Below are positions 7,837-33,726 of a stretch of 64,000 nucleotides of DNA, one piece after another. Each line of letters opens with the position of its first letter. Within the stretch, counting starts at the first letter, position 1. Source of the DNA: Microbispora sp. NBC_01189 (GTDB lineage: Bacteria > Actinomycetota > Actinomycetes > Streptosporangiales > Streptosporangiaceae); contig NZ_CP108581.1 of assembly GCF_036010665.1 (NCBI RefSeq), forward strand, positions 1,987,501-2,051,500, in the 5' to 3' direction. A program made the translations under genes and the position numbers. Below the pieces are notes generated by a model. That model was not told the origin of the DNA. It did not search any database and saw only the letters and a list, made by a program, of their open reading frames with translations.

Positions 7837-8433
7837 GTGAAAGCCGAGACGTACATATCCGTCGACATCGAGGCGGACGGCCCCATCCCCGGCCCCTACT
7901 CCATGGTCAGCTTCGGCATGACCGTGGCGGGCCGCATGACGGGACGGCGCTTCGAGCGGACCGATCCGGAGGCCCGGACCTTCTACGCCGAACTGCGGCC
8001 GATCAGCGACGACTTCGTGCCGGAGGCGCTGGCGGTGAGCGGCCTCGACCGCGACACACTGCTGCGCGAGGGCCGCGATCCGGCGGAGGCGATGACGGCC
8101 GCGGCCGCCTGGATCGCGGAGGTCTGCGGCGCGGATCTGCCGGTGCTCGCGGCCTTCCCCCTGTCGTACGACTGGATGTGGATGTACTGGTACTTCCTGC
8201 GCTTCACCGGCGAGTCGCCGTTCGGCCACTCCCGGTGCGTCGACATCAAGACTCTGTACGCGGCGAAGGCCACGGTGCCGATCGCCTGGGCCACCAAGCG
8301 GCAGATGCCGCGCGAGGTGCGGTCGAGCCGGCAGCACACCCACAACGCGCTCGACGACGCCGTCGAGCAGGCCGAGCTGCTGCAGAACCTCATGGAGTGG
8401 CGTTCCCCCCACAGGAAACCGAAGGACAGTTGA
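7837..8433 (+). CDS. DEDDh-type 3'-5' exonuclease domain protein
   Basis: A 198-residue RNase T/DnaQ-superfamily exonuclease. ExoI is YISVDIEADGPIPG (Asp and Glu for the two metals). The ExoII region follows the central SYDWMWMYWYFLRF stretch, and ExoIII is HNALDDA, the H-x-A-x-x-D of the DEDDh class. Length suits a stand-alone nuclease rather than a polymerase epsilon subunit. The GTG start at 7837 has AGGGAG at good spacing. Substrate, DNA or RNA, cannot be told from sequence. It is divergent from the sugar transferase operon and followed by ugd. Confidence 0.8.
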   Translation: MKAETYISVDIEADGPIPGPYSMVSFGMTVAGRMTGRRFERTDPEARTFYAELRPISDDFVPEALAVSGLDRDTLLREGRDPAEAMTAAAAWIAEVCGADLPVLAAFPLSYDWMWMYWYFLRFTGESPFGHSRCVDIKTLYAAKATVPIAWATKRQMPREVRSSRQHTHNALDDAVEQAELLQNLMEWRSPHRKPKDS

Positions 8434-8470
8434 ACCAGACAGATCAGGCACCCCGCCGCCGGCTCGCCGG

Positions 8471-8524
8471 CACTCACCGCAACGCGAGCACTCACCGGAA
8501 CGCGGGCACTCACCGGAACGCCGA
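8471..8524. repeat. three tandem 18-bp repeats upstream of ugd
   Basis: Three copies of an 18-mer beginning CACTCACCG start at 8471, 8489 and 8507, with a partial fourth running up to the ATG of the UDP-glucose dehydrogenase gene at 8543. The repeats therefore sit in its 5' untranslated region. Confidence 0.8.
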
Positions 8525-10016: not shown

Positions 10017-10628
10017 TCAGCGGGGCGGCTTGGCCGGGTTGAGGTCGCCGGCGTGGAACCGGTTCTGCGTCGCCTCCAGGCCCGCCGTCATCAGTGACTC
10101 CACCATGTCGGCGGCCCGGTCCACCAGGAACGGCAGGTCCTTGCGCTCGGCCGTGGCGAAGTCGCGCAGCACGAACGTCGCCGGGTCCATCCGGCCCGGC
10201 GGGCGGCCGATGCCGAACCGGATGCGCGGGTAGTCGCGCGTGCCGAGCGACTTCGTGATCGACTTCAGGCCGTTGTGCCCGTTGTCGCCGCCGCCGAGCT
10301 TCGCGCGCAGCGCGCCGTACGGGATGTCCAGCTCGTCGTGGACCACGGCGACCCGGTCAGGAGTGATCTTGTAGAAGTCGGCCAGCGCCTTGACCGGACC
10401 GCCGGACAGGTTCATGAAGGACAGCGGCTTGGCCAGCACCACGGGCAGCGCGGCCAGGCGGCCCTCGACCACCTCGGCCCGCGACCGGTGCGCCTTGAAC
10501 CGCCCGCCCACCCGGGCCGCCAGCTCGTCGAGCACCAGGAAACCCGCGTTGTGGCGGTTCCCGGCGTACTCCGGCCCGGGGTTGCCCAGGCCCACGACCA
10601 GCCACCGCTGCGCGGCCGTGTCGGACAT
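10017..10628 (-). CDS. pth: peptidyl-tRNA hydrolase
   Basis: A 203-residue Pth that releases peptides from stalled peptidyl-tRNA. Active-site residues are in place: VGLGNPG (Asn), NRHNAGF (catalytic His) and [10 protein letters not shown] (Asp), then [13 protein letters not shown] and [14 protein letters not shown] 10628 has GGAGGAG seven bases upstream; the longer frame to 10643 is less likely. It lies downstream of rplY with a hairpin between, as in other actinobacteria where rplY and pth are neighbours. Confidence 0.95.
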
Positions 10629-10660
10629 CGCTGTCTCCTCCACTGTCGCCTCACGTGGAA

Positions 10661-10692
10661 GAGTCCTCCGCGGGACACCCCGCGGAGGACTC
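10661..10692 (-). terminator. strong hairpin between rplY and pth
   Basis: A perfect 14-bp stem (GAGTCCTCCGCGGG with its complement) and a 4-base loop lie 16 bases after the rplY stop. There is no U-tract, so it may act as a partial terminator or processing site that sets the rplY/pth ratio. Confidence 0.6.
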
Positions 10693-10707
10693 TCTCACGA
10701 ATCGGTC

Positions 10708-11304
10708 CTACTCGGCGGCCTCGGCGGTGCCACCCTCGGCGGCCTCGCCCTGCTCGGGCAGCCCGGCCGACGGAGCGGCGATCACCTGCAGCACCAGGGC
10801 CTCGGGGTCACCGGCCAGCGTGGTGCCCTCCGGCAGCTTCAGGTCGGCCGCGTGCACCGTGTAGCCCTCTTCCTTGCCGTCCACGTCGACCTCGACGCCG
10901 GTCGGGATGTGGGTCGCCTCGGCCTCGACCGAGAGCGTGTTCAGCGGCTGGTCGACGATGGCGCTGCCGTTCGTCGCGCCGACGACGGTGACCGGGATCT
11001 CGACGACGACCTTCTCGCCCCGCTTGACCAGGAGCAGGTCGACGTGCTCCAGGAAGCCCTTGATCGGGTCGCGCTGGACGCCCTTGGGCAGCGCGATCTC
11101 GTCCACGCCCTCACCGTGCAGGCGGATGAGCACGTTGGGCGTGCGCAGCGCGAGCAGCAGCTCGTGGCCGGGGAGGGTCAGGTGCTTGGTCTCGGTGCCG
11201 TGGCCGTAGAGAACGGCGGGGACCTTGTTCCCCCGGCGGATCTTGCGGGCGGCGCCCTTGCCGAACTCGTCGCGGAGCTCGGCGGCGATGCGTACTTCGG
11301 ACAC
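10708..11304 (-). CDS. rplY: 50S ribosomal protein L25/general stress protein Ctc
   Basis: A 198-residue CTC-form L25 that binds 5S rRNA. The N-terminal L25 domain (AAELRDEFGKGAARKIRRGNKVPAVLYGHG) is followed by the CTC beta domain, and the tail is Ala/Glu-rich and acidic, as usual in actinobacteria. The GTG start at 11304 has AGGAGA seven bases upstream; the longer frame to 11349 lacks this. It is divergent from the Trp leader transcript. Confidence 0.93.
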   Translation of the reverse strand: MSEVRIAAELRDEFGKGAARKIRRGNKVPAVLYGHGTETKHLTLPGHELLLALRTPNVLIRLHGEGVDEIALPKGVQRDPIKGFLEHVDLLLVKRGEKVVVEIPVTVVGATNGSAIVDQPLNTLSVEAEATHIPTGVEVDVDGKEEGYTVHAADLKLPEGTTLAGDPEALVLQVIAAPSAGLPEQGEAAEGGTAEAAE

Positions 11305-11422
11305 GGCACATCTCCTAGGGATGTCGACGGATGACGCGCTCCCCCTCACCCGCCCTAGCGGAAGGCGTTACGAGCGCAACCCCACAAGCCTATCGCGTCT
11401 TCCGTGGTGGCCAGGTGGCCCT

Positions 11423-11434
11423 TAGACTGGCGGC
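11423..11434 (+). promoter_or_regulatory. -10 box for leaderless Trp leader transcript
   Basis: TAGACT at 11423-11428 followed by six bases and then ATG 11435, the standard actinobacterial leaderless arrangement in which transcription starts at the A of ATG. No good -35 box is seen. Confidence 0.6.
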
Positions 11435-11476
11435 ATGCGACGTACGTCGTGTCAGGGCTGGTGGCGCTCCGGATAG
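11435..11476 (+). CDS. tryptophan leader peptide (MRRTSCQGWWRSG)
   Basis: A 13-codon open frame with two adjacent Trp codons (11459-11464), a stop at 11474, and an intrinsic terminator 26 bases later, upstream of a trpS remnant. This is the layout of ribosome-mediated transcription attenuation: when charged tRNA-Trp is scarce the ribosome stalls at the Trp pair and the terminator does not form. Too short to be found by ordinary gene callers. The call rests on the Trp pair, the terminator, and the downstream tryptophanyl-tRNA synthetase fragment. Confidence 0.8.
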   Translation: MRRTSCQGWWRSG

Positions 11477-11501
11477 GAGCGGCCGATCACACGCGTACGA
11501 C

Positions 11502-11528
11502 GGGCCGTTCGGATGGACGGCCCTTTTT
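11502..11528 (+). terminator. attenuator terminator
   Basis: A 7-bp stem (GGGCCGT with ACGGCCC) and an 8-base loop are followed directly by TTTTT at 11524-11528. It is placed between the Trp leader peptide and the trpS remnant. It is one of few hairpins in the window with a true U-tract. Confidence 0.85.
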
Positions 11529-11588
11529 CGTGCTCCCTGGACGAGGGGTCGCCGTCGGCGGCGGACCACCTGCCAAGGGAGAGATCAC

Positions 11589-12195
11589 ATGACGACCACT
11601 CTGGAGAGCAGTCCGTCCGACGACCTCGGCGGTGCTCGTCGCGGACTACCAGGTCCTGACCGACCGGGACGTCGCCGACCGGCTCACCGAGCACGTGGAG
11701 GACCTGGTGCTCGACTACCTGGCCGCGGGCCTCGACCCCGGCCGGGCCGGGATCGTCCCGGTCGGGCAGGACCAGCTCCTCCACCTGGAGGTCGCCCGCC
11801 TGATCGCGCGCCGCTTCAACCACCGCTACGGCTCCCCCTCGCACCCGGCGTTCCCCGAGCCCGAGGCCCTGCTGTCCGCGGCGCCGCTGCTGCTCGGCAC
11901 CGACGGCGCCAAGATGAGCAAGAGCCGGGGCAACGCCGTCGCCCTGGCCGCCACCGCCGACGAGACCGCCCGGCTGATCCGCGGCGCGAGGACCGACGCG
12001 GACCGCCACATCACCTATGACCCGGCCGCCCGGCCCGAGGTGTCCAGCCTCGTCCTCCTGGCCGCGCTGTGCCTCGGCCGGGACGCGCACGAGGTGGCCG
12101 GCGAGATCGGCGGCCGGGGGGCCGCCGCGCTGAAGGCGCTGGTCGCCGACGCGACCCTCGCGGAGGTCCGTACGGCGATGGGCGCCCGCTACTAG
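11589..12195 (+). pseudogene. trpS: tryptophanyl-tRNA synthetase, internally deleted
   Basis: An ATG at 11589 after an AAGGGAGAG site encodes about 12 residues (MTTTLESSPSDD), then the frame shifts. Real TrpRS sequence resumes at about 11630 (VLVADYQVLTDRD) and runs to the stop. The N-terminal HIGH region is gone. A second in-frame deletion joins GLDPGRA to VPVGQDQLLHLEVARLIARRFN, removing about 60 residues of the catalytic domain. The KMSKS loop (GAKMSKSRGN) and the anticodon-side C-terminus survive. At about 190 residues instead of 335 it cannot be an active synthetase. An intact trpS must exist elsewhere. Confidence 0.88.
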
Positions 12196-12201
12196 AGCCG
12201 G

Positions 12202-12233
12202 TCCGGGCCCCCGGGGACGTCCGGGGGCCCGGA
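12202..12233. terminator. bidirectional hairpin between trpS remnant and prs
   Basis: A perfect 13-bp GC stem (TCCGGGCCCCCGG with its complement) and a 6-base loop lie between two convergent genes. No U-tract on either side. Confidence 0.7.
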
Positions 12234-12238
12234 GCGGA

Positions 12239-13216
12239 TCAGGCGTCGCCCTCGAAGAGGCTGGTGACGGAGCCGTCGGTGAAGACCTCGGTGATGGCCC
12301 GGGCGATCAGCGGGGCGATCGACATCACCGTGAGGCTGTCGAACCTCTTCTCCTCCTCGATGGGCAGCGTGTTGGTCACGACCACCTCGGAGATCCGGGA
12401 GTTCTTCAGGCGGTCCACGGCGGGCCCGGAGAACACCGCGTGGGTGGCGGCCACGATGACGTCGGTCGCGCCGTGCTCGTACAGGGCGTCGGCGGCCTTG
12501 CAGATCGAGCCGCCGGTGTCGATCATGTCGTCGATCAGCACGCAGGTCCGGCCGTGGACCTTGCCGACCACCTCGTGCACCTTCACCTGGTTCGCCACGT
12601 CGAGGTCGCGCCGCTTGTGGATGAAGGCCACCGGGGTGCCCAGGCTGTCGGACCAGCGCTCGGCGAGCCGTACGCGGCCGGTGTCGGGCGAGACGATCGT
12701 GGTCGTCGCCGGGTCGAGCTTGCCGCGCAGGTAGTTGATCAGCACGGGCATCGCGAACAGGTGGTCCACCGGGCCGTCGAAGAAGCCCTGGATCTGCGAG
12801 GTGTGCAGGTCGATGGACATCATCCGGTCGGCGCCCGCCTGCTTGAACATGTCGGCCACCAGCCGGGCGGTGATCGGCTCGCGGCCGCGGCCCTTCTTGT
12901 CCTGGCGGGCGTAGCCGTAGAACGGCATGATCACGGTGATCCGCTTGGCCGAGGCCCGCTTGAGCGCGTCCACCATGATCAGCTGTTCCATGATCCACTC
13001 GTTGATCGGCGCGGTGTGGCTCTGCATCACGAAGGCGTCGCAGCCGCGCACCGACTCCAGGTAGCGTACGTAGATCTCGCCGTTGGCGAAGTCGCGCAGC
13101 GCGGTCGGCGTGATCTCGACACCGAGCGCGTTCGCGACCTCCCCGGCGAGCTCGGGGTGGGCCCGGCCGGAGAAGAACATGAGGTTCCGCTCGCCGGTCG
13201 TCTTCTTGCCGCTCAT
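12239..13216 (-). CDS. prs: ribose-phosphate pyrophosphokinase
   Basis: A 325-residue PRPP synthetase supplying PRPP for purines, pyrimidines, His, Trp, and, in this lineage, decaprenyl-phosphate arabinose precursors. Visible motifs: FSGRAHPELA at the N-terminus, FANGEIYVR, MPFYGYARQDKKGRGREPI (flexible loop), SIDLHTSQIQGFF and the PRPP-binding loop VLIDDMIDTGGSI near residue 225. Length is normal. Its ATG overlaps the stop of a small upstream frame (ATGA). Linked to glmU as in mycobacteria. Confidence 0.96.
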   Translation of the reverse strand: MSGKKTTGERNLMFFSGRAHPELAGEVANALGVEITPTALRDFANGEIYVRYLESVRGCDAFVMQSHTAPINEWIMEQLIMVDALKRASAKRITVIMPFYGYARQDKKGRGREPITARLVADMFKQAGADRMMSIDLHTSQIQGFFDGPVDHLFAMPVLINYLRGKLDPATTTIVSPDTGRVRLAERWSDSLGTPVAFIHKRRDLDVANQVKVHEVVGKVHGRTCVLIDDMIDTGGSICKAADALYEHGATDVIVAATHAVFSGPAVDRLKNSRISEVVVTNTLPIEEEKRFDSLTVMSIAPLIARAITEVFTDGSVTSLFEGDA

Positions 13217-13344
13217 GCCGCGCTCCTCGCGTGTCGAGCCTGTCGGCCGTGCCGGGCCTGCTGTGGCCGGACGGGCCGGTCCGCGGTGCCCTCGCCTCGC
13301 CCGGGGCCCGCGAACCCCTTCGCCCCGTCGATGTGGTCGGTCAC
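13213..13344 (-). CDS. possible 43-residue small protein coupled to prs
   Basis: The frame starts at GTG 13344 with a strong GGAGGA four bases upstream and ends in TGA inside the prs start (ATGA). The product is basic and low in complexity (ends QQARHGRQARHARSAA) with no recognised family. It fills the otherwise empty 231-base glmU-prs gap. It could be a real small protein, or a leader whose translation delivers ribosomes to prs. The evidence is only the ribosome-binding site and the overlap. Confidence 0.4.
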   Translation of the reverse strand: MTDHIDGAKGFAGPGRGEGTADRPVRPQQARHGRQARHARSAA

Positions 13345-16794: not shown

Positions 16795-17769
16795 ATGGAA
16801 CCTGTGAGCGAGTCCTCCCGAGCTCGACGACGCATGACCGGCGCGGAGCGGCGCGAGCAGCTGATCCAGGTCGGCCGGGCCCTGTTCGCGGACAAGGGCT
16901 TCGACGGCACGTCGGTCGAGGAGATCGCGGCGAGCGCCAAGGTCTCCAAGCCCGTGGTCTACGAGCACTTCGGCGGCAAGGAGGGCATCTACGCCGTCGT
17001 GATCGACCGGGAGATGCAGCGCCTGCTGAGCCTGGTCACCCAGGCGCTGTCGGCCTCGCACGCACGCGTCAAGCTGGAGCGCGCCGCGCTCGCCCTCCTG
17101 CAGTACATCGAGGAGAGCAGCGAGGGCTTCCGCATCCTGGTCCGCGACTCCCACGCCGCGTCGGGAACGGGCACCTTCGCCAGCCTGATCAGCGACATCG
17201 CGAGCCAGGTCGAGGACGTGCTCGCGGACGAGTTCCGGGAACGCGGCTACGACCCCAAGTTCGCGCCGATGTACGCGCAGATGCTCGTGGGGATGACCGC
17301 CCTCACCGGCCAGTGGTGGCTCGACGTGCGCACGCCGCGCCGCGAGGAGGTCGCCGCCCACCTCGTGAACCTGTCCTGGAACGGCCTGAAGGGCCTCGAC
17401 TCCGACCCCGGGCTCACCGGCGCGACCCGCGGGCTGGTCCTGAGCCCCGCCGCCGAGACCCGTACGCCGCGGCCCACCGAGCGCGAGGCGAAGGAGCAGG
17501 AGAAGCTCCGCCGCGAGCAGGAGAAGGCCCGCGAACGCGAGCAACGCGAGCGCGCCAGGCAGCTCGAACGCCGCCAGCGCGAGCTGGAGAAGACCAAGGA
17601 ACGCGAGCAGCGCGAACGCGCCAAGGAGCTCGAACGGCAGCTCAAGGAGCAGGAGAAGCTCCGCCGCGAGCAGGAGAAGGCCCGCGAACGCGAGCAACGC
17701 GAACGGGCCAGGGAGCTCGAACGCCACCAGCGCGAGCTGGAGAAGCTCAAGGAACGCGAGCAGCACTGA
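16795..17769 (+). CDS. TetR-family regulator with long charged helical tail
   Basis: A 324-residue TetR protein. The HTH is EEIAASAKVSKPVVYEHFGGKEGIYAVV at about residues 45-75, followed by a ligand-binding core ending near residue 215. The last 95 residues are almost only Glu, Arg, Lys and Gln in a continuous helix-forming run. They are encoded by two copies of a 122-base segment (17491-17611 and 17644-17766, period 153). TetR proteins are normally about 200 residues. ATG 16795 is chosen; ATG 16834 is possible. A TetR gene near glmU is also found in other actinobacteria. Likely target: the palindrome before the desaturase (inference). Confidence 0.88.
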   Translation: MEPVSESSRARRRMTGAERREQLIQVGRALFADKGFDGTSVEEIAASAKVSKPVVYEHFGGKEGIYAVVIDREMQRLLSLVTQALSASHARVKLERAALALLQYIEESSEGFRILVRDSHAASGTGTFASLISDIASQVEDVLADEFRERGYDPKFAPMYAQMLVGMTALTGQWWLDVRTPRREEVAAHLVNLSWNGLKGLDSDPGLTGATRGLVLSPAAETRTPRPTEREAKEQEKLRREQEKAREREQRERARQLERRQRELEKTKEREQRERAKELERQLKEQEKLRREQEKAREREQRERARELERHQRELEKLKEREQH

Positions 17770-17909
17770 CGGGACCGGGGACCTCGGCCGGCGGCAGGCC
17801 GGGGAGATCTGAGGGGCGCCCCCGGGAGACAGCCGGCGGGACGGCCCGCGATACCGCGGGCCAGGTGACCGGCGGGGGTGAGCCGGCCTGACGGTTTCGT
17901 TGCTGCGAA

Positions 17910-25768: not shown

Positions 25769-27397
25769 TTGAAGCGCACGCTCACTCTTGGCGGCGTCGC
25801 GGTCGGCCTGCTGGCCTCCGCCGTCGTCGCCTCCCCCGCCGCTCACGCCGGCTCCGACCACCGCGCCGCCACTCTGGCCGGGACCAACCTGGCCGCCAAG
25901 GAAGTCGCGGCGTTCTGGTACGGCGAGAAGAAGGCGAACCTGATCAACGCCACGCCGTACGGCGTGGAGACCAAGGTCGTCGCCAAGCACGTGTCCAAGG
26001 GCGGGCCGTCCGCGGACAGCAAGCCCGGCATCGTGCCGGCGATCGGCGACGAGAAGAAGTCGGCCGCCAAGTCGAAGAACGTGAACCTGCCCAAGACCAC
26101 GGGCAAGGTGTTCTTCATCGGCGCCGACCACCGGCCGCACTGGTGCTCGGCCACCTCGGTGCAGTCGTCGTACCACAACCTGGTCGCCACGGCCGGGCAC
26201 TGCGTGTACGACACCGAGTCGAACCGGGCCACGCTCGACCGCTGGGTGTTCGTCCCCGGTTACTACCAGGGCAAGACCCCGTGGGGCATCTACGTCGGCA
26301 AGACGGCCTACACCCACTACGACTACGACGTGTACGAGGACGGCGACCGCGACTACGCGTTCGTCACCGTGTACAACGGCGTGCTCCCGACCGTGGTCGA
26401 CGACAGCCGCGGCCGTGACGACCACCACGGGCGCGACGACCACCACGGCCGTGACGACCGTTACGGTCGCGACGAGCGCCGTGGCCGCGGGCACGACGAC
26501 CGCACGCAGACCACCCAGGTCAGCGTGCGCGAGTTCCAGGCCAAGAACAAGGGCAAGGACCTCACGGGCGACGGCCCGTGGGCCTCGGGCACGAGTGTCG
26601 TGACCAAGGAGATCACCGCCCGCGAGTACGACAGCCGGCGGGACTGGTACGTCAGCCGTGACGGCGACACCCTGTACTTCCGCAAGGAAGTGCGCGGTCG
26701 TGACGACCACCACGGGCGCGACGACCACCACGGTCGTGGCGACCACGGCGACCGCGACGCGACGCCCGCCACCATCGTGGGCAGGCGCAGCCCCTCGCCG
26801 AGCCCGTCCGCGAGCGTGACGCCCACTCCTTCGCCCAGCGCGACGCCCACGGAGACGCCCACGGCCACTCCGACTCCGACGCCCACCCCCACCGACCCCG
26901 AGTACCGCTACTTCAAGCGGACCTTCTTCGCGAAGAGCGTCCGTGGCGGTCACGGCCCGGTCATCGGCCTCAAGGACGTCGGCCGCCTCGGCGACAACGT
27001 CGGTGGTCAGGGCCTGGCCTACAACCAGAAGATCGGCAGCTCGGTCTTCGTCTTCGGCTACCCGAGCGGATACCACCCCGACGGCAACAACGCCTTCTCG
27101 GGTGCGACCCTCAAGTGGAGCTACGGCAAGACCTTCGCCGCCTCGGCCGCCGCCATCAAGGGCGAGGAGCTGGTCGGCGTCAAGTCCTCCTTCACGGGAG
27201 AGGGCGCCATCGGTTCGTCCTGGCTGCTGCAGTACAAGAGCGCCCGTCGCCTCGGTTACCTGAACGGTGTGACCATCGGCCTCGCCGACACCGACAAGAA
27301 CGACCGGATCGACACCAGCGTCTCCCCGTACTTCGACGGTGAGACCTACGGCGTCTACAAGGCCGCGGCCGGCAACTGGTCCGGCAAGATCGTCTGA
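25769..27397 (+). CDS. secreted trypsin/V8-like protein, paralog 1 (probable pseudoprotease) with His-rich repeats
   Basis: A 542-residue exported protein of S1-peptidase fold. Signal peptide residues 1-27 (cut after AHA). His and Asp of the triad are in VATAGHCVYD near residue 150 and DRDYAFVTV near 200. The nucleophile region reads GEGAIGSSWLL where relatives have G-S-S-G-G-P-W, so Ile replaces the serine. The Cys that normally precedes that motif is also lost, while the first disulfide (HWCSATS...GHC) remains. Between Asp and the C-terminal part lie two DDHHGR repeat blocks (about 211-235 and 309-331) and a Pro/Thr/Ser linker (341-377) not found in the other paralogs. The TTG start at 25769 follows AGGGAG. 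Confidence 0.85.
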   Translation: MKRTLTLGGVAVGLLASAVVASPAAHAGSDHRAATLAGTNLAAKEVAAFWYGEKKANLINATPYGVETKVVAKHVSKGGPSADSKPGIVPAIGDEKKSAAKSKNVNLPKTTGKVFFIGADHRPHWCSATSVQSSYHNLVATAGHCVYDTESNRATLDRWVFVPGYYQGKTPWGIYVGKTAYTHYDYDVYEDGDRDYAFVTVYNGVLPTVVDDSRGRDDHHGRDDHHGRDDRYGRDERRGRGHDDRTQTTQVSVREFQAKNKGKDLTGDGPWASGTSVVTKEITAREYDSRRDWYVSRDGDTLYFRKEVRGRDDHHGRDDHHGRGDHGDRDATPATIVGRRSPSPSPSASVTPTPSPSATPTETPTATPTPTPTPTDPEYRYFKRTFFAKSVRGGHGPVIGLKDVGRLGDNVGGQGLAYNQKIGSSVFVFGYPSGYHPDGNNAFSGATLKWSYGKTFAASAAAIKGEELVGVKSSFTGEGAIGSSWLLQYKSARRLGYLNGVTIGLADTDKNDRIDTSVSPYFDGETYGVYKAAAGNWSGKIV

Positions 27398-27417
27398 TCT
27401 GTCCCAGACTGATCCCG

Positions 27418-27447
27418 AAGGGGCCCGGCATCCAGCCGGGCCCTTTT
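27418..27447 (+). terminator. terminator after paralog 1
   Basis: GGGCCCGGC-ATCCA-GCCGGGCCC followed by TTTT, about 20 bases after the stop codon. Confidence 0.9.
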
Positions 27448-27931
27448 CGTGTTTCCGGGGGCGTCTCCGCCGCATCCGTCGCGCCGAGCGCGCGCCTGAC
27501 GGCCGTACGCGCCCTTCCTGCCGTGCGGAGACCCTCTCGAAGCTCGTCGCCACTCAGCGGCGCCGCACACCGCTTCCCGGACGGTCCGAGCCTCGCCGCG
27601 ACCCCGCCATCACCGCGGCGGACAACTCAGACGTGATCACGATGCTTTCTGGTTTCGTCTATTTAGTGTGATTTAGGTCACATTAGAGGCCTCCACGGGA
27701 TCTTGCGAGCGGCCCCGGAACCGGCCGAAGATTCACACTCCCAACAGGCGAAACGCAGCAAAATCTCAGCAGCGGCTTGAGGGCCCAAGAGGCCGGTCAT
27801 CACGGAGGGCGATGGTTCGCTCACCCAAACGCCGTTGATCCTCCTGATTTCTCTTATAACTTTGCTTATCAGTCCTTTACTGACGCATGGGGCGCAGGTG
27901 GCGCCTCACGACAGACCAAGGGAGAACCCTC
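27448..27931. other. intergenic region between paralogs 1 and 2
   Basis: No gene seen. Holds Crp-type site 2 at 27667-27682, a TATAAC -10 candidate at 27855-27860, and the conserved leader (about 27876-27931) that ends in AAGGGAG before the TTG start. Confidence 0.7.
27667..27682. promoter_or_regulatory. Crp-type site 2 (TGTGA-TTTAGG-TCACA)
   Basis: A perfect TGTGA-N6-TCACA dyad centred 257 bases before the second paralog's start and about 192 bases before the presumed transcription start. Confidence 0.78.
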
Positions 27932-29464
27932 TTGAAGCGCACCCTCACCCTCGGTGGCATGGCGGCCGGCCTCCTGGCCTCCGCCGTCGTCGCCTCCCCC
28001 GCCGCCCACGCGGGGAACACCGTGTCCAACGACACGCTGGCCAAGACCAACCTGGCCGCCCAGCAGGTCGCGGCGTTCTGGTACGGCGAGAACAAGGCCA
28101 ACCTCGTCAACGCCAAGCCGTACGGTGTGGAGACCAAGGTCTCCGCCAAGCACATCTCCAAGGGCGGGCCGTCCGCGGACAGCAAGCCCGGCACCGTCCC
28201 GGCGATCGGCGACGAGAAGAAGTCGACGTCCAAGTCGAAGAACGTGAACCTGCCCAAGACCACGGGCAAGGTGTTCTTCATCGGCGCCGACCACAAGCCG
28301 CACTGGTGCTCGGCCACCTCGGTGCAGTCGAAGTACCACAACCTGGTCGCGACCGCGGGTCACTGCGTGTACGACACCCAGTCGAACAAGGCCACCCTTG
28401 ACAAGTGGGTGTTCGTCCCGGGTTACTACCAGGGTAAGACCCCGTGGGGCATCTACGTCGGTAAGACGGCGTACACGCACTACGACTACGACGTGTACGA
28501 GGACGGCGACCGCGACTACGCGTTCGTCACCGTGTACAACGGCGTGCTCCCGACCTCGGTCGCGGGCGGCAAGAACTACGAGTCGGCTTCGTACGAGACC
28601 GCCGGCGAGGCTGCCGAGGCCCTCAAGAAGCTGCAGGCGGACAAGGAGACGGGCTACTCCAGCCTGAAGGTCGAGTCCGTCGTGGACTGGGCCCACAAGG
28701 TCGCCGTGGGCACGCCCGACTCGCAGAAGGTCGCGGCCAGCGTCGCCCAGCTCGCGGTCGACCCGGCCACGATCGGCACGGCTCGGACCACCCTGGAGGA
28801 CTGGGCCAAGGGTCACCTCGGCGAGTCCACCTACACCGACAACACGTGGGGCTCCGTGGTCAAGGAGGTCCGCCAGGGCCGGAGGCACCACTCCTCCCGC
28901 CTCGGCTGGAACTCGGGCGACGCCGCGAAGCAGACGGTCTACACCTTCACCAAGGACCGCAAGACGTACGAGGCCACCTTCTGGGGCAACTTCGACGTCG
29001 ACTACAAGATCACCGGCAAGCTGCTGTCGATCGGCCTGAAGGACGTCGGCCGTCTCGGCGACAACGTCGGTGGTCAGGGTCTGGCCTACAACCAGAAGAT
29101 CGGCCAGGCGGTCTTCGTGTTCGGCTACCCCAGCGGGTCGCACCCGGACGGCAACAACGCCTTCACCGGCAAGACCCTCAAGTGGAGCTACGGCAAGACC
29201 TTCGCCGCGAAGGCCCCGGCCATCAAGGCCGAGGAACTGCAGGGCGTCAAGTCGTCCTTCACCGGTGAGGGCGCGCTCGGCTCGGCGTGGCTGCTCAAGT
29301 ACAACAACGGCCGCCGTCTCGGCTACCTGAACGGCGTGACCATCGGCGTCTCCGACACCGACGGCAACGACCGCTACGACACCTCCGTCTCCCCGTACTT
29401 CGACGGCGAGACCTACGGCGTCTACAAGGCGGCCGCCAACCTGTGGTCCGGCAAGATCGTCTGA
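27932..29464 (+). CDS. secreted trypsin/V8-like protein, paralog 2 (probable pseudoprotease)
   Basis: A 510-residue exported protein very similar to its neighbours over residues 1-205 and the last 150 residues. Signal peptide ends at AHA near residue 28. His (VATAGHCVYD) and Asp (DRDYAFVTV) are kept; the nucleophile motif reads GEGALGSAWLL, with Leu at the Ser position. In place of paralog 1's His-rich insert it has a globular middle part of about 170 residues (KKLQADKETGYSSLKV, VDWAHKVAVGTPDSQKVA, WGNFDVDYKITG). The TTG start at 27932 after AAGGGAG is chosen over the upstream ATG at 27887, because the leader is conserved with the other paralogs. Function unknown; possibly a binding protein rather than an enzyme. 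Confidence 0.85.
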   Translation: MKRTLTLGGMAAGLLASAVVASPAAHAGNTVSNDTLAKTNLAAQQVAAFWYGENKANLVNAKPYGVETKVSAKHISKGGPSADSKPGTVPAIGDEKKSTSKSKNVNLPKTTGKVFFIGADHKPHWCSATSVQSKYHNLVATAGHCVYDTQSNKATLDKWVFVPGYYQGKTPWGIYVGKTAYTHYDYDVYEDGDRDYAFVTVYNGVLPTSVAGGKNYESASYETAGEAAEALKKLQADKETGYSSLKVESVVDWAHKVAVGTPDSQKVAASVAQLAVDPATIGTARTTLEDWAKGHLGESTYTDNTWGSVVKEVRQGRRHHSSRLGWNSGDAAKQTVYTFTKDRKTYEATFWGNFDVDYKITGKLLSIGLKDVGRLGDNVGGQGLAYNQKIGQAVFVFGYPSGSHPDGNNAFTGKTLKWSYGKTFAAKAPAIKAEELQGVKSSFTGEGALGSAWLLKYNNGRRLGYLNGVTIGVSDTDGNDRYDTSVSPYFDGETYGVYKAAANLWSGKIV

Positions 29465-29483
29465 TCTCCGTACGCCTGACGAG

Positions 29484-29512
29484 AAGGGCCCGGCTTCGTG
29501 CCGGGCCCTTTT
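29484..29512 (+). terminator. terminator after paralog 2
   Basis: GGGCCCGGC-TTCGT-GCCGGGCCC followed by TTTT, 22 bases after the stop codon. Same stem as the other two paralogs. Confidence 0.9.
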
Positions 29513-29679
29513 CCGTTGTCCCGGCCACCCCGAAACCCCTCCGGCGAACCGTCCCGGCAGGTGGACGAGCGCCGGCGGACACGGGCGACCGACACAGGCA
29601 GCGGGCGCGGGCGGCGGATGTGAAGACGGCCCAGCGACCGCAGCAGCCCAAGAGCACGTGCCCGTGAACCGCTGCGGCT

Positions 29680-29865
29680 GTGACCACACGCCACCGCGAC
29701 CACAATGCCACCGTGACCACATGCCGCCGCGACCACGGCGCTCGGGACCGTGGAGCAGACGACCTGGGGGACCTGCCGGCACGACGCCGCGCGCACGGAA
29801 GCCGCGCACACGGAAGCCGCGCACACGGAAGCCGCGCACACGGAAGCCGCACACACGGAAGCCGC
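29680..29865. repeat. two tandem-repeat tracts between paralogs 2 and 3
   Basis: At about 29680-29740 a GACCACAnGCCnCCG-type unit of 15-17 bp repeats four times, diverged. At 29791-29865 a 15-mer (GCACACGGAAGCCGC) repeats five times with one or two changes, ending just before the terminator of paralog 3. The rest of 29513-29871 shows no gene. Confidence 0.8.
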
Positions 29866-29871
29866 GCACAC

Positions 29872-29900
29872 AAAAAAGGGCCCGGCTGGATGCCGGGCCC
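29872..29900 (-). terminator. terminator after paralog 3
   Basis: GGGCCCGGC stem with loop and, on the minus strand, TTTTTT after it (AAAAAA at 29872-29877). Confidence 0.9.
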
Positions 29901-29923
29901 CTTCGCGATCAGTTGTGGGCAGA

Positions 29924-31456
29924 TCAGACGATCTTGCCGGACCACAGGTTGGCGGCCGCCTTGTAGACGCCGTAGGTCTCGCCGTCGAAGTACGGGGAGA
30001 CGGAGGTGTCGTAGCGGTCGTTGCCGTCGGTGTCGGAGACGCCGATGGTCACGCCGTTCAGGTAGCCGAGACGGCGGCCGTTGTTGTACTTCAGCAGCCA
30101 GGACGAGCCGAGCGCGCCCTCACCGGTGAAGGACGACTTGACGGCCTGCAGCTCCTCGGCCTTGATGGCCGGGGCCTTCGCGGCGAAGGTCTTGCCGTAC
30201 GTCCACTTGAGCGTGTGGCCGGTGAAGGCGTTGTTGCCGTCCGGGTGCACACCGCTCGGGTAGCCGAACACGAAGACCGGCTGGCCGAGCTTCTGGTTGT
30301 AGGCCAGGCCCTGACCACCGACGTTGTCGCCGAGGCGGCCGACGTCCGACAGGCCGATCGACAGCACCTTGCCGGTGACCTGGTAGTCGGTGTCGAAGTT
30401 GCCCCAGAAGGTGGCCTTGTACTTCTTGTTGCCCTGGGCGAAGACGAAGGTCGTCTGCTTCGTGGCGTTGTTCGAGTTCCAGCCGGTGGCGGAGTTCCGG
30501 TAGGTCTCGGTGACCACGGAGCCCCACGTGTTGTCCGTGTAGGTGGAGGCGCCGAGGTGGCCCTTGGCCCAGTTCTCCAGGGTGGTCCGAGCCGTGCCGA
30601 TCGTGGCCGGGTCGACCGCGAGCTGGGCGACGCTGGCCGCGACCTTCTGCGAGTCGGGCGTGCCCAGGGCGACCTTGTGGGCCCAGTCGACGACGGGGGT
30701 GATCTCCAGCTTGGACGCGCCGGTCTCCTTGGCGTCCTGCAGGTCCTTGATCTTCTTCTCGGCCTCGGCGCGGGTCTCGAAGGTGCCCCAGTCCTTGCCG
30801 CCGTCGGTCGACGAGCTGGACACGCCTCTACTCTCGACCTTGACGCCGTTGTACACGGTGACGAACGCGTAGTCGCGGTCGCCGTCCTCGTACACGTCGT
30901 AGTCGTAGTGCGTGTACGCCGTCTTACCGACGTAGATGCCCCACGGGGTCTTGGTCTGGTAGTAACCGGGGATGAACACCCACTTGTCGAGGGTGGCCGC
31001 GTTCGACTCGGTGTCGTACACGCAGTGACCCGCGGTCGCGACGACGTTGTGGTAAGCCGACTGCACCGAGGTGCCGGTGCACCAGTGCGGCTTTCCGTCG
31101 GCGCCGAGGAAGAACACCTTGCCCGTGGTCTTGGGCAGGTTCACGTTCTTCGACTTCGCGGCCGACTTCTTCTCGTCGCCGATCGCCGGCACCACGCCGG
31201 GCTTGCTGTCCGCGGACGGCCCGCCCTTGGAGATGTGCTTGGCGACGACCTTGGTCTCCACGCCGTACGGCGTGGCGTTGATCAGGTTCGCCGCGTCCTC
31301 GCCGTACCAGAATGCCGCAACCTGCTGCGCGGCCAGGTTGGTCTTGGCCAGCGAGTTGGCGGAAACGTCGTTCGCGGCGTTCGCAGCGGGGGTGGCGACA
31401 ACGGCGGTGGCCAGCAGACCGGCCGCCATGCCGCCCAGAGTAAGCGTGCGCTTCAT
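29924..31456 (-). CDS. secreted trypsin/V8-like protein, paralog 3 (probable pseudoprotease)
   Basis: A 510-residue exported protein, the same length as paralog 2 and close to it throughout, including the middle region (KKIKDLQDAKETGASKLEI, VDWAHKVALGTPDSQKVA). Signal peptide ends near residue 28 (AANA). Triad: His in VATAGHCVYD and Asp in DRDYAFVTV kept, nucleophile motif GEGALGSSWLL with Leu instead of Ser. ATG 31456 follows AGGGAG; the other copies use TTG. It is on the opposite strand, convergent with paralog 2, with its own Crp-type site, leader and terminator. The trio looks like duplication of a whole transcription unit. Confidence 0.87.
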   Translation of the reverse strand: MKRTLTLGGMAAGLLATAVVATPAANAANDVSANSLAKTNLAAQQVAAFWYGEDAANLINATPYGVETKVVAKHISKGGPSADSKPGVVPAIGDEKKSAAKSKNVNLPKTTGKVFFLGADGKPHWCTGTSVQSAYHNVVATAGHCVYDTESNAATLDKWVFIPGYYQTKTPWGIYVGKTAYTHYDYDVYEDGDRDYAFVTVYNGVKVESRGVSSSSTDGGKDWGTFETRAEAEKKIKDLQDAKETGASKLEITPVVDWAHKVALGTPDSQKVAASVAQLAVDPATIGTARTTLENWAKGHLGASTYTDNTWGSVVTETYRNSATGWNSNNATKQTTFVFAQGNKKYKATFWGNFDTDYQVTGKVLSIGLSDVGRLGDNVGGQGLAYNQKLGQPVFVFGYPSGVHPDGNNAFTGHTLKWTYGKTFAAKAPAIKAEELQAVKSSFTGEGALGSSWLLKYNNGRRLGYLNGVTIGVSDTDGNDRYDTSVSPYFDGETYGVYKAAANLWSGKIV

Positions 31457-31875: not shown

Positions 31876-33726
31876 TCACTGGCCTTCCAGGCGTTCGGCG
31901 AGCTCCATCCATTCGAGCTCGACCATCTCCTTCTGCGCGCCGACCTCGCGCAGCTCCGCGTCGAGGGCGGCCAGGCGGGTGAAGTCGCCGGCGGCCCCGG
32001 CCATGCCGGCGTGCAGCGCCGCCTCCCGCCCGCCGAGCTTGTCGAGCTGCCGCTCCAGCCGGTTGAGCTCCTTGCGCAGCTCCCGCAGCTCCTTGGCCGA
32101 CAGTCCGGCGGTGGCCGCCTGGTCCGCGCCCTGCCCGCCCGTTTCCTGCCCGTCCCCGCCCTGCCTCCGCTCCGCCGGTACGGCGGCGGGCGCGGCCGAC
32201 GAGGCCGCGCCGCGGGCGGACAGCGCGGTTCCCGAGGCCCGGCGCTCCAGGTATTCGTCCACGCCCCCCGGGAGCATGGAGAGCCTGCCGTCCCCGAGCA
32301 GGGCCACGCAGCGGTCGGCCACCCGCTCCAGGAAGTAGCGGTCGTGGCTCACCACGACCAGCGTGCCGGCCCAGCCGTCGAGCAGGTCCTCCAGCTCGGT
32401 GAGGGTCTCGATGTCGAGATCGTTGGTGGGCTCGTCGAGCAGGAGCACGTTCGGCTCGTCCATGATCAGCCGAAGGAGCTGGAGCCGCCGCCGCTCACCG
32501 CCGGACAGGTCGCCGACGACCTTCCACTGCGCCTCGCCCCGGAAGCCGAGGCGTTCGAGCAGCTGGGAGGCCGACCATTCCTTCTTGCCGACCTGGACGT
32601 ACTTGCGCACCTCCTCGACCGTCTCCAGCACCCGCCGCGACGGATCGAGATCGTGCAGTTCCTGCGACAGATGCGCGAGCCGTACGGTCCGGCCCCGCAC
32701 GACCCGGCCGCCGTCCTGCGTGACCGTGCCCGACAGCAGGCGCAGCACCGACGACTTGCCCGAGCCGTTGACCCCGATCAGCCCGATCCGGTCACCCGGG
32801 CCGAACTGGTACGTACTGTGGTCGAGCACGAGCGGACCGGCGCCGGGCCCTCCCGCGTGGAGCGTCACGTCCTCCAAATCGAAGACCGTCTTGCCCAGCC
32901 GCGCCGAGGCGAAGCCGAGCAGCTCGACCGTCTCCCGCGGCGGCGGCTCGTTCGCGATCAGCGCCTCGGCGGCGTTGATCCGGAACTTCGGCTTCGACGT
33001 ACGCGCCGGCGGGCCGCGCCGCAGCCAGGCGATCTCCTTGCGCATCAGGTTCTGCCTGCGCTCCTCGGCAGCCTGGGCGAGGCGGGCGCGCTCGGCCTTG
33101 GCGAGGACGTAGGCGGCGTAGCCGCCCTCGTACCGCTCGACCGTGCCGTCCACGACCTCCCAGGTGCGGGTGGCCACCGCGTCGAGGAACCACCGGTCGT
33201 GCGTGACCACCAGCAACGCCGACCTGCGCCGGGACAGATGCCCGGCCAGCCACGCGATGGCCTCGATGTCGAGGTGGTTCGTCGGCTCGTCGAGGACGAT
33301 CAGGTCGTGCTCGCCGATCAGCAGCCTGGCCAGCGCCGTACGGCGGCGCTCACCGCCGGACAGGGCCCCTGCCGGGGACGCCAGGTCGACGTCACCGAGC
33401 AGCCGGGCGAGGATCTCCCTGATCGCCGCGTCGCCGGCCCATTCGTGCTCGGCCCGCCCGGCCAGGACGATGTCCTTCACCGGCATGTCAGGGTCGAACT
33501 CGTCGCGCTGGGAGAGCATGCCCACCCGCAGGTTGCGCGTGTGCGTCACGCGCCCGCCGTCGGGCCGCAGCGCGCCGGAGATGATCGAGATGAGCGTGGT
33601 CTTGCCGCCGCCGTTGCGGCCCACGACGCCGATCCGGTCGCCCTGCTCGATGCCGAGAGAGACATCGGCCAGCAGGGGCTTGAGGCCGAAAGCGTGGGAG
33701 ACCGACTCCAGATTGACCAGGTTCAT
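31876..33726 (-). CDS. ABC-F ATPase, Uup-like
   Basis: A 616-residue soluble tandem ATPase of the ABC-F family, acting on ribosomes rather than in transport. First domain: Walker A GRNGGGKTT, signature LSGGERRR, Walker B LIVLDEPTNHLD. Second: GVNGSGKSS, LSGGERRR, VLLLDEPTNDLD. The interdomain linker (KEIAWLRRGPPARTSKPKFRI) is the P-site tRNA interaction motif of Uup-type members. The C-terminal 90 residues form a coiled coil (LRELRKELNRLERQLDKLGGREA), as in Uup. The last residue pair before it is Ala/Gly/Gln-rich linker. TAGGCT nine bases upstream of ATG 33726 suggests a very short leader. Antibiotic-resistance ABC-F proteins are an alternative, but the coiled coil argues for Uup. Confidence 0.88.
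   Translation of the reverse strand: MNLVNLESVSHAFGLKPLLADVSLGIEQGDRIGVVGRNGGGKTTLISIISGALRPDGGRVTHTRNLRVGMLSQRDEFDPDMPVKDIVLAGRAEHEWAGDAAIREILARLLGDVDLASPAGALSGGERRRTALARLLIGEHDLIVLDEPTNHLDIEAIAWLAGHLSRRRSALLVVTHDRWFLDAVATRTWEVVDGTVERYEGGYAAYVLAKAERARLAQAAEERRQNLMRKEIAWLRRGPPARTSKPKFRINAAEALIANEPPPRETVELLGFASARLGKTVFDLEDVTLHAGGPGAGPLVLDHSTYQFGPGDRIGLIGVNGSGKSSVLRLLSGTVTQDGGRVVRGRTVRLAHLSQELHDLDPSRRVLETVEEVRKYVQVGKKEWSASQLLERLGFRGEAQWKVVGDLSGGERRRLQLLRLIMDEPNVLLLDEPTNDLDIETLTELEDLLDGWAGTLVVVSHDRYFLERVADRCVALLGDGRLSMLPGGVDEYLERRASGTALSARGAASSAAPAAVPAERRQGGDGQETGGQGADQAATAGLSAKELRELRKELNRLERQLDKLGGREAALHAGMAGAAGDFTRLAALDAELREVGAQKEMVELEWMELAERLEGQ

What the first reader, a model, noticed from the sequence alone, without database searches (positions are those of the whole stretch)
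11423..12195. Trp attenuator still attached to a gutted trpS
A leaderless 13-codon peptide with tandem Trp codons, a U-tract terminator, and then a tryptophanyl-tRNA synthetase lacking HIGH and about 60 central residues. Regulation looks intact while the enzyme cannot work. Either decay is recent, or the short protein or the attenuator has another use, for example sensing Trp charging.
Basis: partly seen in the sequence, partly recalled or inferred. Interest (0 to 1): 0.62.

Follow-up and report, generated by a model that had tools for sequence, protein, structure and literature searches.

The report
Working Trp attenuator, dead spare trpS
An actinobacterium still carries an apparently intact tryptophan-sensing RNA switch in front of a spare tryptophanyl-tRNA synthetase gene that three deletions have destroyed; its close relatives keep the full gene, and this looks like ordinary loss of a dispensable gene.

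Summary
At 11423-11528 there is a classical Trp attenuator: a -10 box six bases before the start codon (probably a leaderless transcript), a 13-codon leader MRRTSCQGWWRSG, mutually exclusive antiterminator and terminator hairpins, and a T-tract. The WW leader is present in all 14 congeners examined. The gene behind it (native ATG 11589) is a pseudogene: against the nearest congener it has three deletions of 170, 195 and 117 bp, and the first removes HIGH and shifts the frame. All 14 congeners have an open trpS with HIGH and KMSKS behind the leader, beside prs in 12 of 14. An intact housekeeping trpS lies elsewhere in this genome. Among compared window genes only trpS is broken, so a general assembly fault is unlikely, though no reads were seen. 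The gene is an auxiliary TrpRS (nearest solved structure: Deinococcus TrpRS II), patchy in the family. Two draft relatives also carry broken copies, and a third has only a relic attenuator with a Trp codon changed to a stop. An inverted repeat and the convergent prs follow, so nothing else is controlled in cis. Recent decay is well supported; another use is not. Trp attenuators before trpS are known in Streptomyces.

The parts
11423..11428 (+). -10 element TAGACT (TANNNT), 6 nt before the leader start codon; predicted leaderless transcript
   Evidence: 25 of 25 loci looked at have TANNNT 6-7 nt before the start codon; background 1.9%
11435..11476 (+). leader peptide ORF MRRTSCQGWWRSG*, tandem Trp codons at 11459-11464
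   Evidence: WW leader in 15 of 15 genus members including this one
11465..11481 (+). hairpin around the leader stop codon (CGCUCC 11465-11470 / GGAGCG 11476-11481), alternative to the antiterminator
   Evidence: 92.4% of cells paired over 24 distinct sequences, two pairs with changes on both sides
11477..11510 (+). antiterminator: GAGCGGCC (11477-11484) pairing with GGCCGUUC (11503-11510)
   Evidence: forms in transcripts cut before the terminator 3' arm when the ribosome is placed on the Trp codons, not when it is placed at the stop or left out; the 7-pair core is paired in 98.8% of cells
11502..11528 (+). intrinsic terminator: 9-bp stem and 4-nt loop (11502-11523), then TTTTT
   Evidence: stem paired in 99.1% of cells; TTTTT in 11 of 14 congeners, broken T-runs in G013, G004 and G007
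11575..11583 (+). Shine-Dalgarno-like AAGGGAGAG before the native trpS start
   Evidence: by eye
11589..12020 (+). frame of the native trpS start codon: 143 codons, the first 14 or so trpS, the rest frameshifted
11589..12195 (+). trpS pseudogene (auxiliary tryptophanyl-tRNA synthetase), 607 nt against 1089 nt in the two nearest congeners
11631..11632 (+). junction of deletion 1: 170 bp, removes the HIGH block, shifts the frame, 1 bp shared between the flanks
11745..11748 (+). junction of deletion 2: 195 bp (65 codons, in frame), 4 bp (GGCC) shared, read from the comparison with G014
12142..12144 (+). junction of deletion 3: 117 bp (39 codons, in frame), 3 bp (GTC) shared
11632..12195 (+). open remainder of the trpS frame (187 aa from a GTG), keeps KMSKS
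12195..12240 (+). inverted repeat (20-nt arms, 90%) between the trpS remnant and the convergent prs; possible shared terminator
12239..13216 (-). prs (ribose-phosphate diphosphokinase), convergent neighbour
10708..11349 (-). ribosomal protein L25/Ctc gene, divergent neighbour

Best explanation
This is a recently decayed auxiliary trpS whose control region is still intact. Inferred mechanism: transcription starts at the leader start codon. When Trp-tRNA is charged, the ribosome runs to the UAG, covers GAGCGGCC, and the terminator stops transcription at about 11525. When Trp-tRNA is scarce, or TrpRS is inhibited, the ribosome stalls on the tandem UGG codons, GAGCGGCC pairs with GGCCGUUC, and transcription reads through into trpS. 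In this strain that read-through yields only a broken message: the native start leads into a frameshift, HIGH and the central block are gone, and transcription probably ends before prs. Charging of tRNA-Trp rests on the housekeeping trpS elsewhere. The attenuator persists because the loss is recent, not because it has been shown to have another job. Shown: anatomy, conservation, deletions, intact second copy. Inferred: attenuation itself, lack of activity, age.
For: 14 of 14 congeners have an open trpS (380 codons or more of open frame, with HIGH and KMSKS) and a WW leader; it lies beside prs in 12 of 14. Three deletions relative to the nearest congener, one frameshifting. Of window genes matched at >70% identity by ORFs chosen from the two nearest congeners, 19 of 20 (G001) and 33 of 34 (G014) are covered over 93%; the one partial frame in both is that of trpS. 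Three changes on this lineage (P186L, K256R, P288A in G001 numbering) hit residues shared by all 14 congeners. Full housekeeping trpS of 337 aa over the NCBIfam trpS cut-off. The gene is patchy: 47 of 150 family genomes have a copy at 64% identity or more and 8 more only at 41-43% (recounted). Attenuator logic.
Against: No reads or transcript data, so neither the deletions nor attenuation are verified. Substitutions say little: the raw count against the two nearest relatives is 7 nonsynonymous: 1 synonymous, but two of the seven are states shared by most other congeners and so arose on the relatives' side; polarised it is 5:1, not significant against the relatives' trpS (8:12, p 0.16) or other genes of this lineage (87:106, p 0.097). 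The remnant frame stays open from a GTG and two of three deletions are in frame (by chance about 0.26), so a short product cannot be excluded. Minimum-energy folding of the full leader gives the terminator even with the ribosome on the Trp codons; the antiterminator wins only in truncated transcripts, the usual kinetic argument.
Confidence: 0.88

Rival explanations
1. The deletions are assembly errors: the strain has a full trpS and the consensus lost three stretches.
For: No reads seen. The junctions share only 1, 4 and 3 bp, which does not point to a mechanism. This genome has somewhat more replacing changes than its two relatives in other genes too (87:106 against 39:67 and 85:186), which could reflect sequence error.
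Against: Only trpS is broken among the compared window genes (19 of 20 and 33 of 34 covered over 93%). Gap counts against relatives resemble those between the relatives. Three separate losses in one dispensable gene fit a pseudogene better than random error. Single contig, 100% complete by the table.
Confidence: 0.06
2. The 187-aa remnant is a functional TrpRS-like protein, for instance a sensor or tRNA-binding fragment.
For: Frame open from GTG 11632; KMSKS and the following region retained; in another genus G040 has also lost the HIGH block of a trpS behind an intact WW leader.
Against: No ribosome-binding site seen at GTG 11632, and the native start is out of frame. HIGH and the central block are lost, which should remove ATP and Trp binding (roles recalled, not tested). 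Three residues shared by all 14 congeners are changed. In G040 the remainder is itself split by a frameshift.
Confidence: 0.03
3. The attenuator has been kept for a trans role: the terminated ~90-nt leader RNA or the WW peptide acts elsewhere, as described for peTrpL of Sinorhizobium meliloti (PMC7298713, abstract and outline seen).
For: The leader is fully intact in this genome (107 bits) although the gene is dead.
Against: No sign of retention without a trp gene: of 10 family genomes (of 150) with a model match but no trpS relative at E <= 1e-50, 6 have another trp gene behind the match, one match is cut by a contig end, two are weak with nothing clear behind them, and the one good orphan (G078) has a stop in place of the first Trp codon. 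Against this argument: too little time has passed here to expect decay of a 99-nt element, so its intactness is uninformative either way.
Confidence: 0.03

Closest known systems
Trp attenuator of trpS in Streptomyces (candidate before trpS2 of S. avermitilis, PMC1262725; trpL2 of S. lividans TK24, PMC8079986)
   Same: short leader peptide before a trpS (13 residues in S. lividans), leaderless transcript by RNA-seq in S. lividans, hairpins
   Different: S. lividans trpL2 is MMTRTCTQLWRAA with one Trp codon and no uridine-rich stretch reported; here two Trp codons and a T-tract, and the gene behind it is broken
Auxiliary TrpRS1 of Streptomyces coelicolor (indolmycin-resistant, listed in PMC9437257; trpS SCO3334 in the WblC-activated set, PMC7157823)
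   Same: second trpS beside a housekeeping one; likely role as a spare enzyme under TrpRS stress (inference)
   Different: orthology and drug resistance of the window family not tested; here the copy is dead. That TrpRS1 is SCO3334 is recalled
Deinococcus radiodurans TrpRS II (PDB 1yi8, 2a4m)
   Same: best sequence match of the intact congener protein among solved structures, E 7e-71; the organism name for these entries comes from PMC9437257 and recall
   Different: radiation induction and the NO-synthase partnership (PMC9437257) not testable here
peTrpL / rnTrpL of Sinorhizobium meliloti
   Same: an attenuator product can act in trans (PMC7298713, abstract)
   Different: no evidence for it here

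Membership tests
Classical ribosome-mediated Trp transcription attenuator | short leader ORF with clustered Trp codons just before a stop | tested here: met
   TGGTGG invariant in 26 of 26 aligned leaders, which were chosen because they had the peptide or TGGTGG
Classical ribosome-mediated Trp transcription attenuator | intrinsic terminator and mutually exclusive antiterminator, with covariation | tested here: met
   covariation is modest (3 of 15 pairs and 1 of 7 pairs with changes on both sides)
Classical ribosome-mediated Trp transcription attenuator | gene of Trp metabolism or charging downstream | tested here: met
   remnant here; open trpS in 14 of 14 congeners
Classical ribosome-mediated Trp transcription attenuator | read-through rises when Trp-tRNA is uncharged | not testable with these tools
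   needs RNA or reporter data
Functional tryptophanyl-tRNA synthetase (TIGR00233) | whole-protein score over the curated cut-off | tested here: not met
   82.9 bits against a cut-off of 176.75; intact congener 222.5
Functional tryptophanyl-tRNA synthetase (TIGR00233) | HIGH signature | tested here: not met
Functional tryptophanyl-tRNA synthetase (TIGR00233) | KMSKS signature | tested here: met
   AKMSKSRGN retained
trpS pseudogene | frame disrupted relative to intact relatives at the same locus | tested here: met
   same locus (prs side) in 12 of 14 congeners
Indolmycin-resistant auxiliary TrpRS | resistance to indolmycin | not testable with these tools
   no residue test was made

The most novel reading that the evidence does not exclude
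After losing its gene, the attenuator is kept as a free-standing reporter of Trp-tRNA charging whose terminated ~90-nt RNA or WW leader peptide acts in trans on other genes.
Probability: 0.03. Interest if true: 0.6.

Novelty: new member of a known kind. Interest (0 to 1): 0.2.

Why it matters
It is a clean snapshot of a spare aminoacyl-tRNA synthetase being lost while its RNA switch is still whole, and the comparison shows a conserved, probably leaderless Trp attenuator in front of auxiliary trpS in a large actinobacterial family. The pair would be useful for dating how fast orphan attenuators decay. It does not change what is known about attenuation.

Tried and rejected
Missing tyrosyl-tRNA synthetase: TIGR00234 found no tyrS in the window's genome although 14 of 14 congeners have one, which first looked like a faulty assembly. 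The flanking genes matched, and a look at the place showed that the expected site lies in a stretch withheld as N. The absence is therefore an artefact of withholding and was dropped.

General assembly fault: rejected as the main explanation after comparing the window with two congener contigs.

Substitution test: the first count (7:1; Fisher p 0.031 and 0.038, 0.027 against other genes with trpS left out) looked like relaxed selection. With 12 further congeners as outgroup it is 5:1 and no longer significant, so I do not rest on it.

Orphan attenuators as a sign of a second use: model R1 was searched in the own genome (one clear hit) and in 150 family genomes (51 with a match at E <= 0.01). 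Of these 51, 35 have a trpS relative at 64% or more, 6 one at 41-43%, and 10 neither (from the tables). Downstream genes of those 10 were read (five proteins scanned): the other trpS type (G017 by scan; G071 and G107 by likeness to it), fused trpE (G071 and G120 by scan, G041 by likeness), trpD (G064 by scan), a contig end with trpS residues 4-70 (G102), an AfsR/SARP-like regulator (G078), nothing clear (G061, G115).

26 of the 80 loci were searched with R1; nine had a plus-strand hit at E < 0.01, among them loci titled Streptomyces misionensis, Streptacidiphilus, Saccharopolyspora, Actinomadura and (weak) Nonomuraea.

A conservation table over family loci gave mixed columns, so I used only the congeners. 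No structure prediction was run.

Full report
What is there. At 11435-11476 there is a 13-codon leader, MRRTSCQGWWRSG, with tandem Trp codons; a -10 box TAGACT ends six bases before its start codon. A 9-bp terminator with five T follows (11502-11528), then AAGGGAGAG and the trpS start ATG at 11589. The divergent neighbour is the L25/Ctc gene and the convergent one is prs, with a 20-nt inverted repeat between the trpS remnant and prs.

The attenuator. All 14 congeners have a WW leader of 13 codons ending WWRSx*. For G004 I had first taken an ATG inside the terminator as the trpS start, so its leader was left out of the structural alignment; one search shows its terminator stem is present. TTTTT follows the stem in 11 of 14 congeners; G013, G004 and G007 have broken T-runs. 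Twenty-six leaders (14 of the genus including this one, 12 of 26 family loci) were aligned. Over 24 distinct rows the terminator pairs in 99.1% of cells and the stop-codon hairpin in 92.4%, the antiterminator in 98.8%, with A-U to G-C exchange at one pair in four sequences. Folding transcripts that end before the terminator's 3' arm gives the antiterminator if the ribosome masks the Trp codons, and not if it sits at the stop or is absent. The full leader folds to the terminator in all four ribosome states tried, so the switch would be kinetic, as in classical attenuators. TANNNT lies 6-7 nt before the start codon in 25 of 25 loci looked at; in S. lividans TAnnnT with a mean spacing of 6.3 nt marks transcription starts, and trpL2 before trpS is leaderless (PMC8079986, passages). 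Rfam at gathering thresholds has no match in the leader.

The gene. The two nearest congeners, G001 and G014, have a 362-aa TrpRS. The retained trpS pieces are 94-96% identical to G001. The window lacks 170, 195 and 117 bp. The first loss removes the block with TGDRPTGRLHLGHYFG and shifts the frame, so the native start now leads into 143 codons of which only the first 14 or so are trpS. The second removes 65 codons including YPVHQAADIL, the third 39 codons near the C-terminus. The rest scores 82.9 bits against the NCBIfam trpS cut-off of 176.75; the intact congener scores 222.5.

Same place? In one search the 14 congener stretches were compared with window 10501-13300. Nine match on both the L25 and the prs side, three (G012, G009, G010) on the prs side only, and two (G004, G007) on neither side within the stretch compared.

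Is it real decay? ORFs chosen by codon composition from congener contigs were placed on the window. From G001, 92 ORFs gave 22 with a hit; after dropping two with no piece over 70% identity, 19 were covered over 93% and one was partial. From G014, 52 gave 35 with a hit; after dropping one, 33 were full and one partial. The partial frame is the one holding trpS in both. Gap statistics against the relatives resemble those between the relatives. Substitutions are a weak witness: differences of the window from both G001 and G014 in 172 retained codons are 7 nonsynonymous and 1 synonymous, against 2:3 and 6:9 unique to G001 and G014. But at residues 92 and 293 most other congeners share the window's state, so those changes lie on the relatives' side. 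Polarised, the window has 5:1, p 0.16 against the relatives' 8:12 and 0.097 against 87:106 in nine other genes of this lineage (counts). Three of the five hit residues that all 14 congeners share. Reads were not available.

What backs the loss. A second trpS of 337 aa near G000:C1:4106506 is open and over the cut-off. The auxiliary gene is patchy: 55 of 150 family genomes match the intact congener at E <= 1e-50, 47 of them at 64% identity or more and 8 at 41-43% (recount). Its closest solved relative is TrpRS II, PDB 1yi8 and 2a4m. Three of the 47 copies are broken: this one; G040, found only from residue 68 on, with no HIGH block seen and a frameshift; and G016, complete from residue 15 but in three pieces over two frames. 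G040 keeps both Trp codons in its leader, G016 keeps one, and G078 has a leader with the first Trp codon changed to a stop and no trpS found in the ~3.5 kb behind it. These three are drafts, so sequence errors are possible. The series reads as stages of the same loss, with the attenuator following the gene; that order is inference from three cases.

Known background. Seliverstov and others (PMC1262725; part 1 of 3 of the text and passages) predicted attenuators before trp operons and before trpS2 of S. avermitilis. PMC8079986 (passages) reports trpL2 before trpS. PMC9437257 (passages) lists the auxiliary TrpRS1 with indolmycin resistance and TrpRS II with nitration. PMC7157823 (passages) lists trpS SCO3334 in the WblC-activated set. 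I recall, without having seen it here, a report of attenuation control of the S. coelicolor auxiliary trpS. Literature searches on related terms (top 15 of 475 and top 10 of 105 seen) showed no title on an attenuator stranded before a trpS pseudogene; that is a statement about those listings only.

Verdict. Observation confirmed, interpretation half right: intact control region, dead gene, recent loss. Nothing requires a second function.

Noticed in passing
window 25769-31456: Three paralogous secreted-protease-like genes (two on +, one on -) of 510-542 aa; they cross-match each other in the contig comparisons. Assignment as proteases is by eye.
   Followed up: no
window 31876-33726 (-) and L172 (G149): ABC-F-like ATPase gene (373.8 bits against a cut-off of 380 for NF000355). 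In G149 a gene with a similar start (by eye) has a weak attenuator-model hit (38 bits) about 500 nt upstream, with a WW leader but no T-tract.
   Followed up: partly
window 8405-8519: About 7 kb present in G001 and G014 at this point is absent from the window.
   Followed up: no
window 17491-17795: Direct repeats in a TetR-like gene (by eye; Arg/Glu-rich tail) that give offset matches to the relatives.
   Followed up: no
L165, L170, L173, L175, L176, L164, L166, L169: Trp attenuator-like leaders also stand before fused trpE, trpD and the other trpS type in family members; four of the eight downstream proteins were scanned (L165, L170, L175, L164), the rest judged by likeness.
   Followed up: partly
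L163 (G078): Relic attenuator with a stop in place of a Trp codon, now upstream of an AfsR/SARP-like regulator gene.
   Followed up: yes
L168 (G040): Independent trpS copy that has also lost the HIGH block behind an intact WW leader, plus a frameshift; draft genome.
   Followed up: partly
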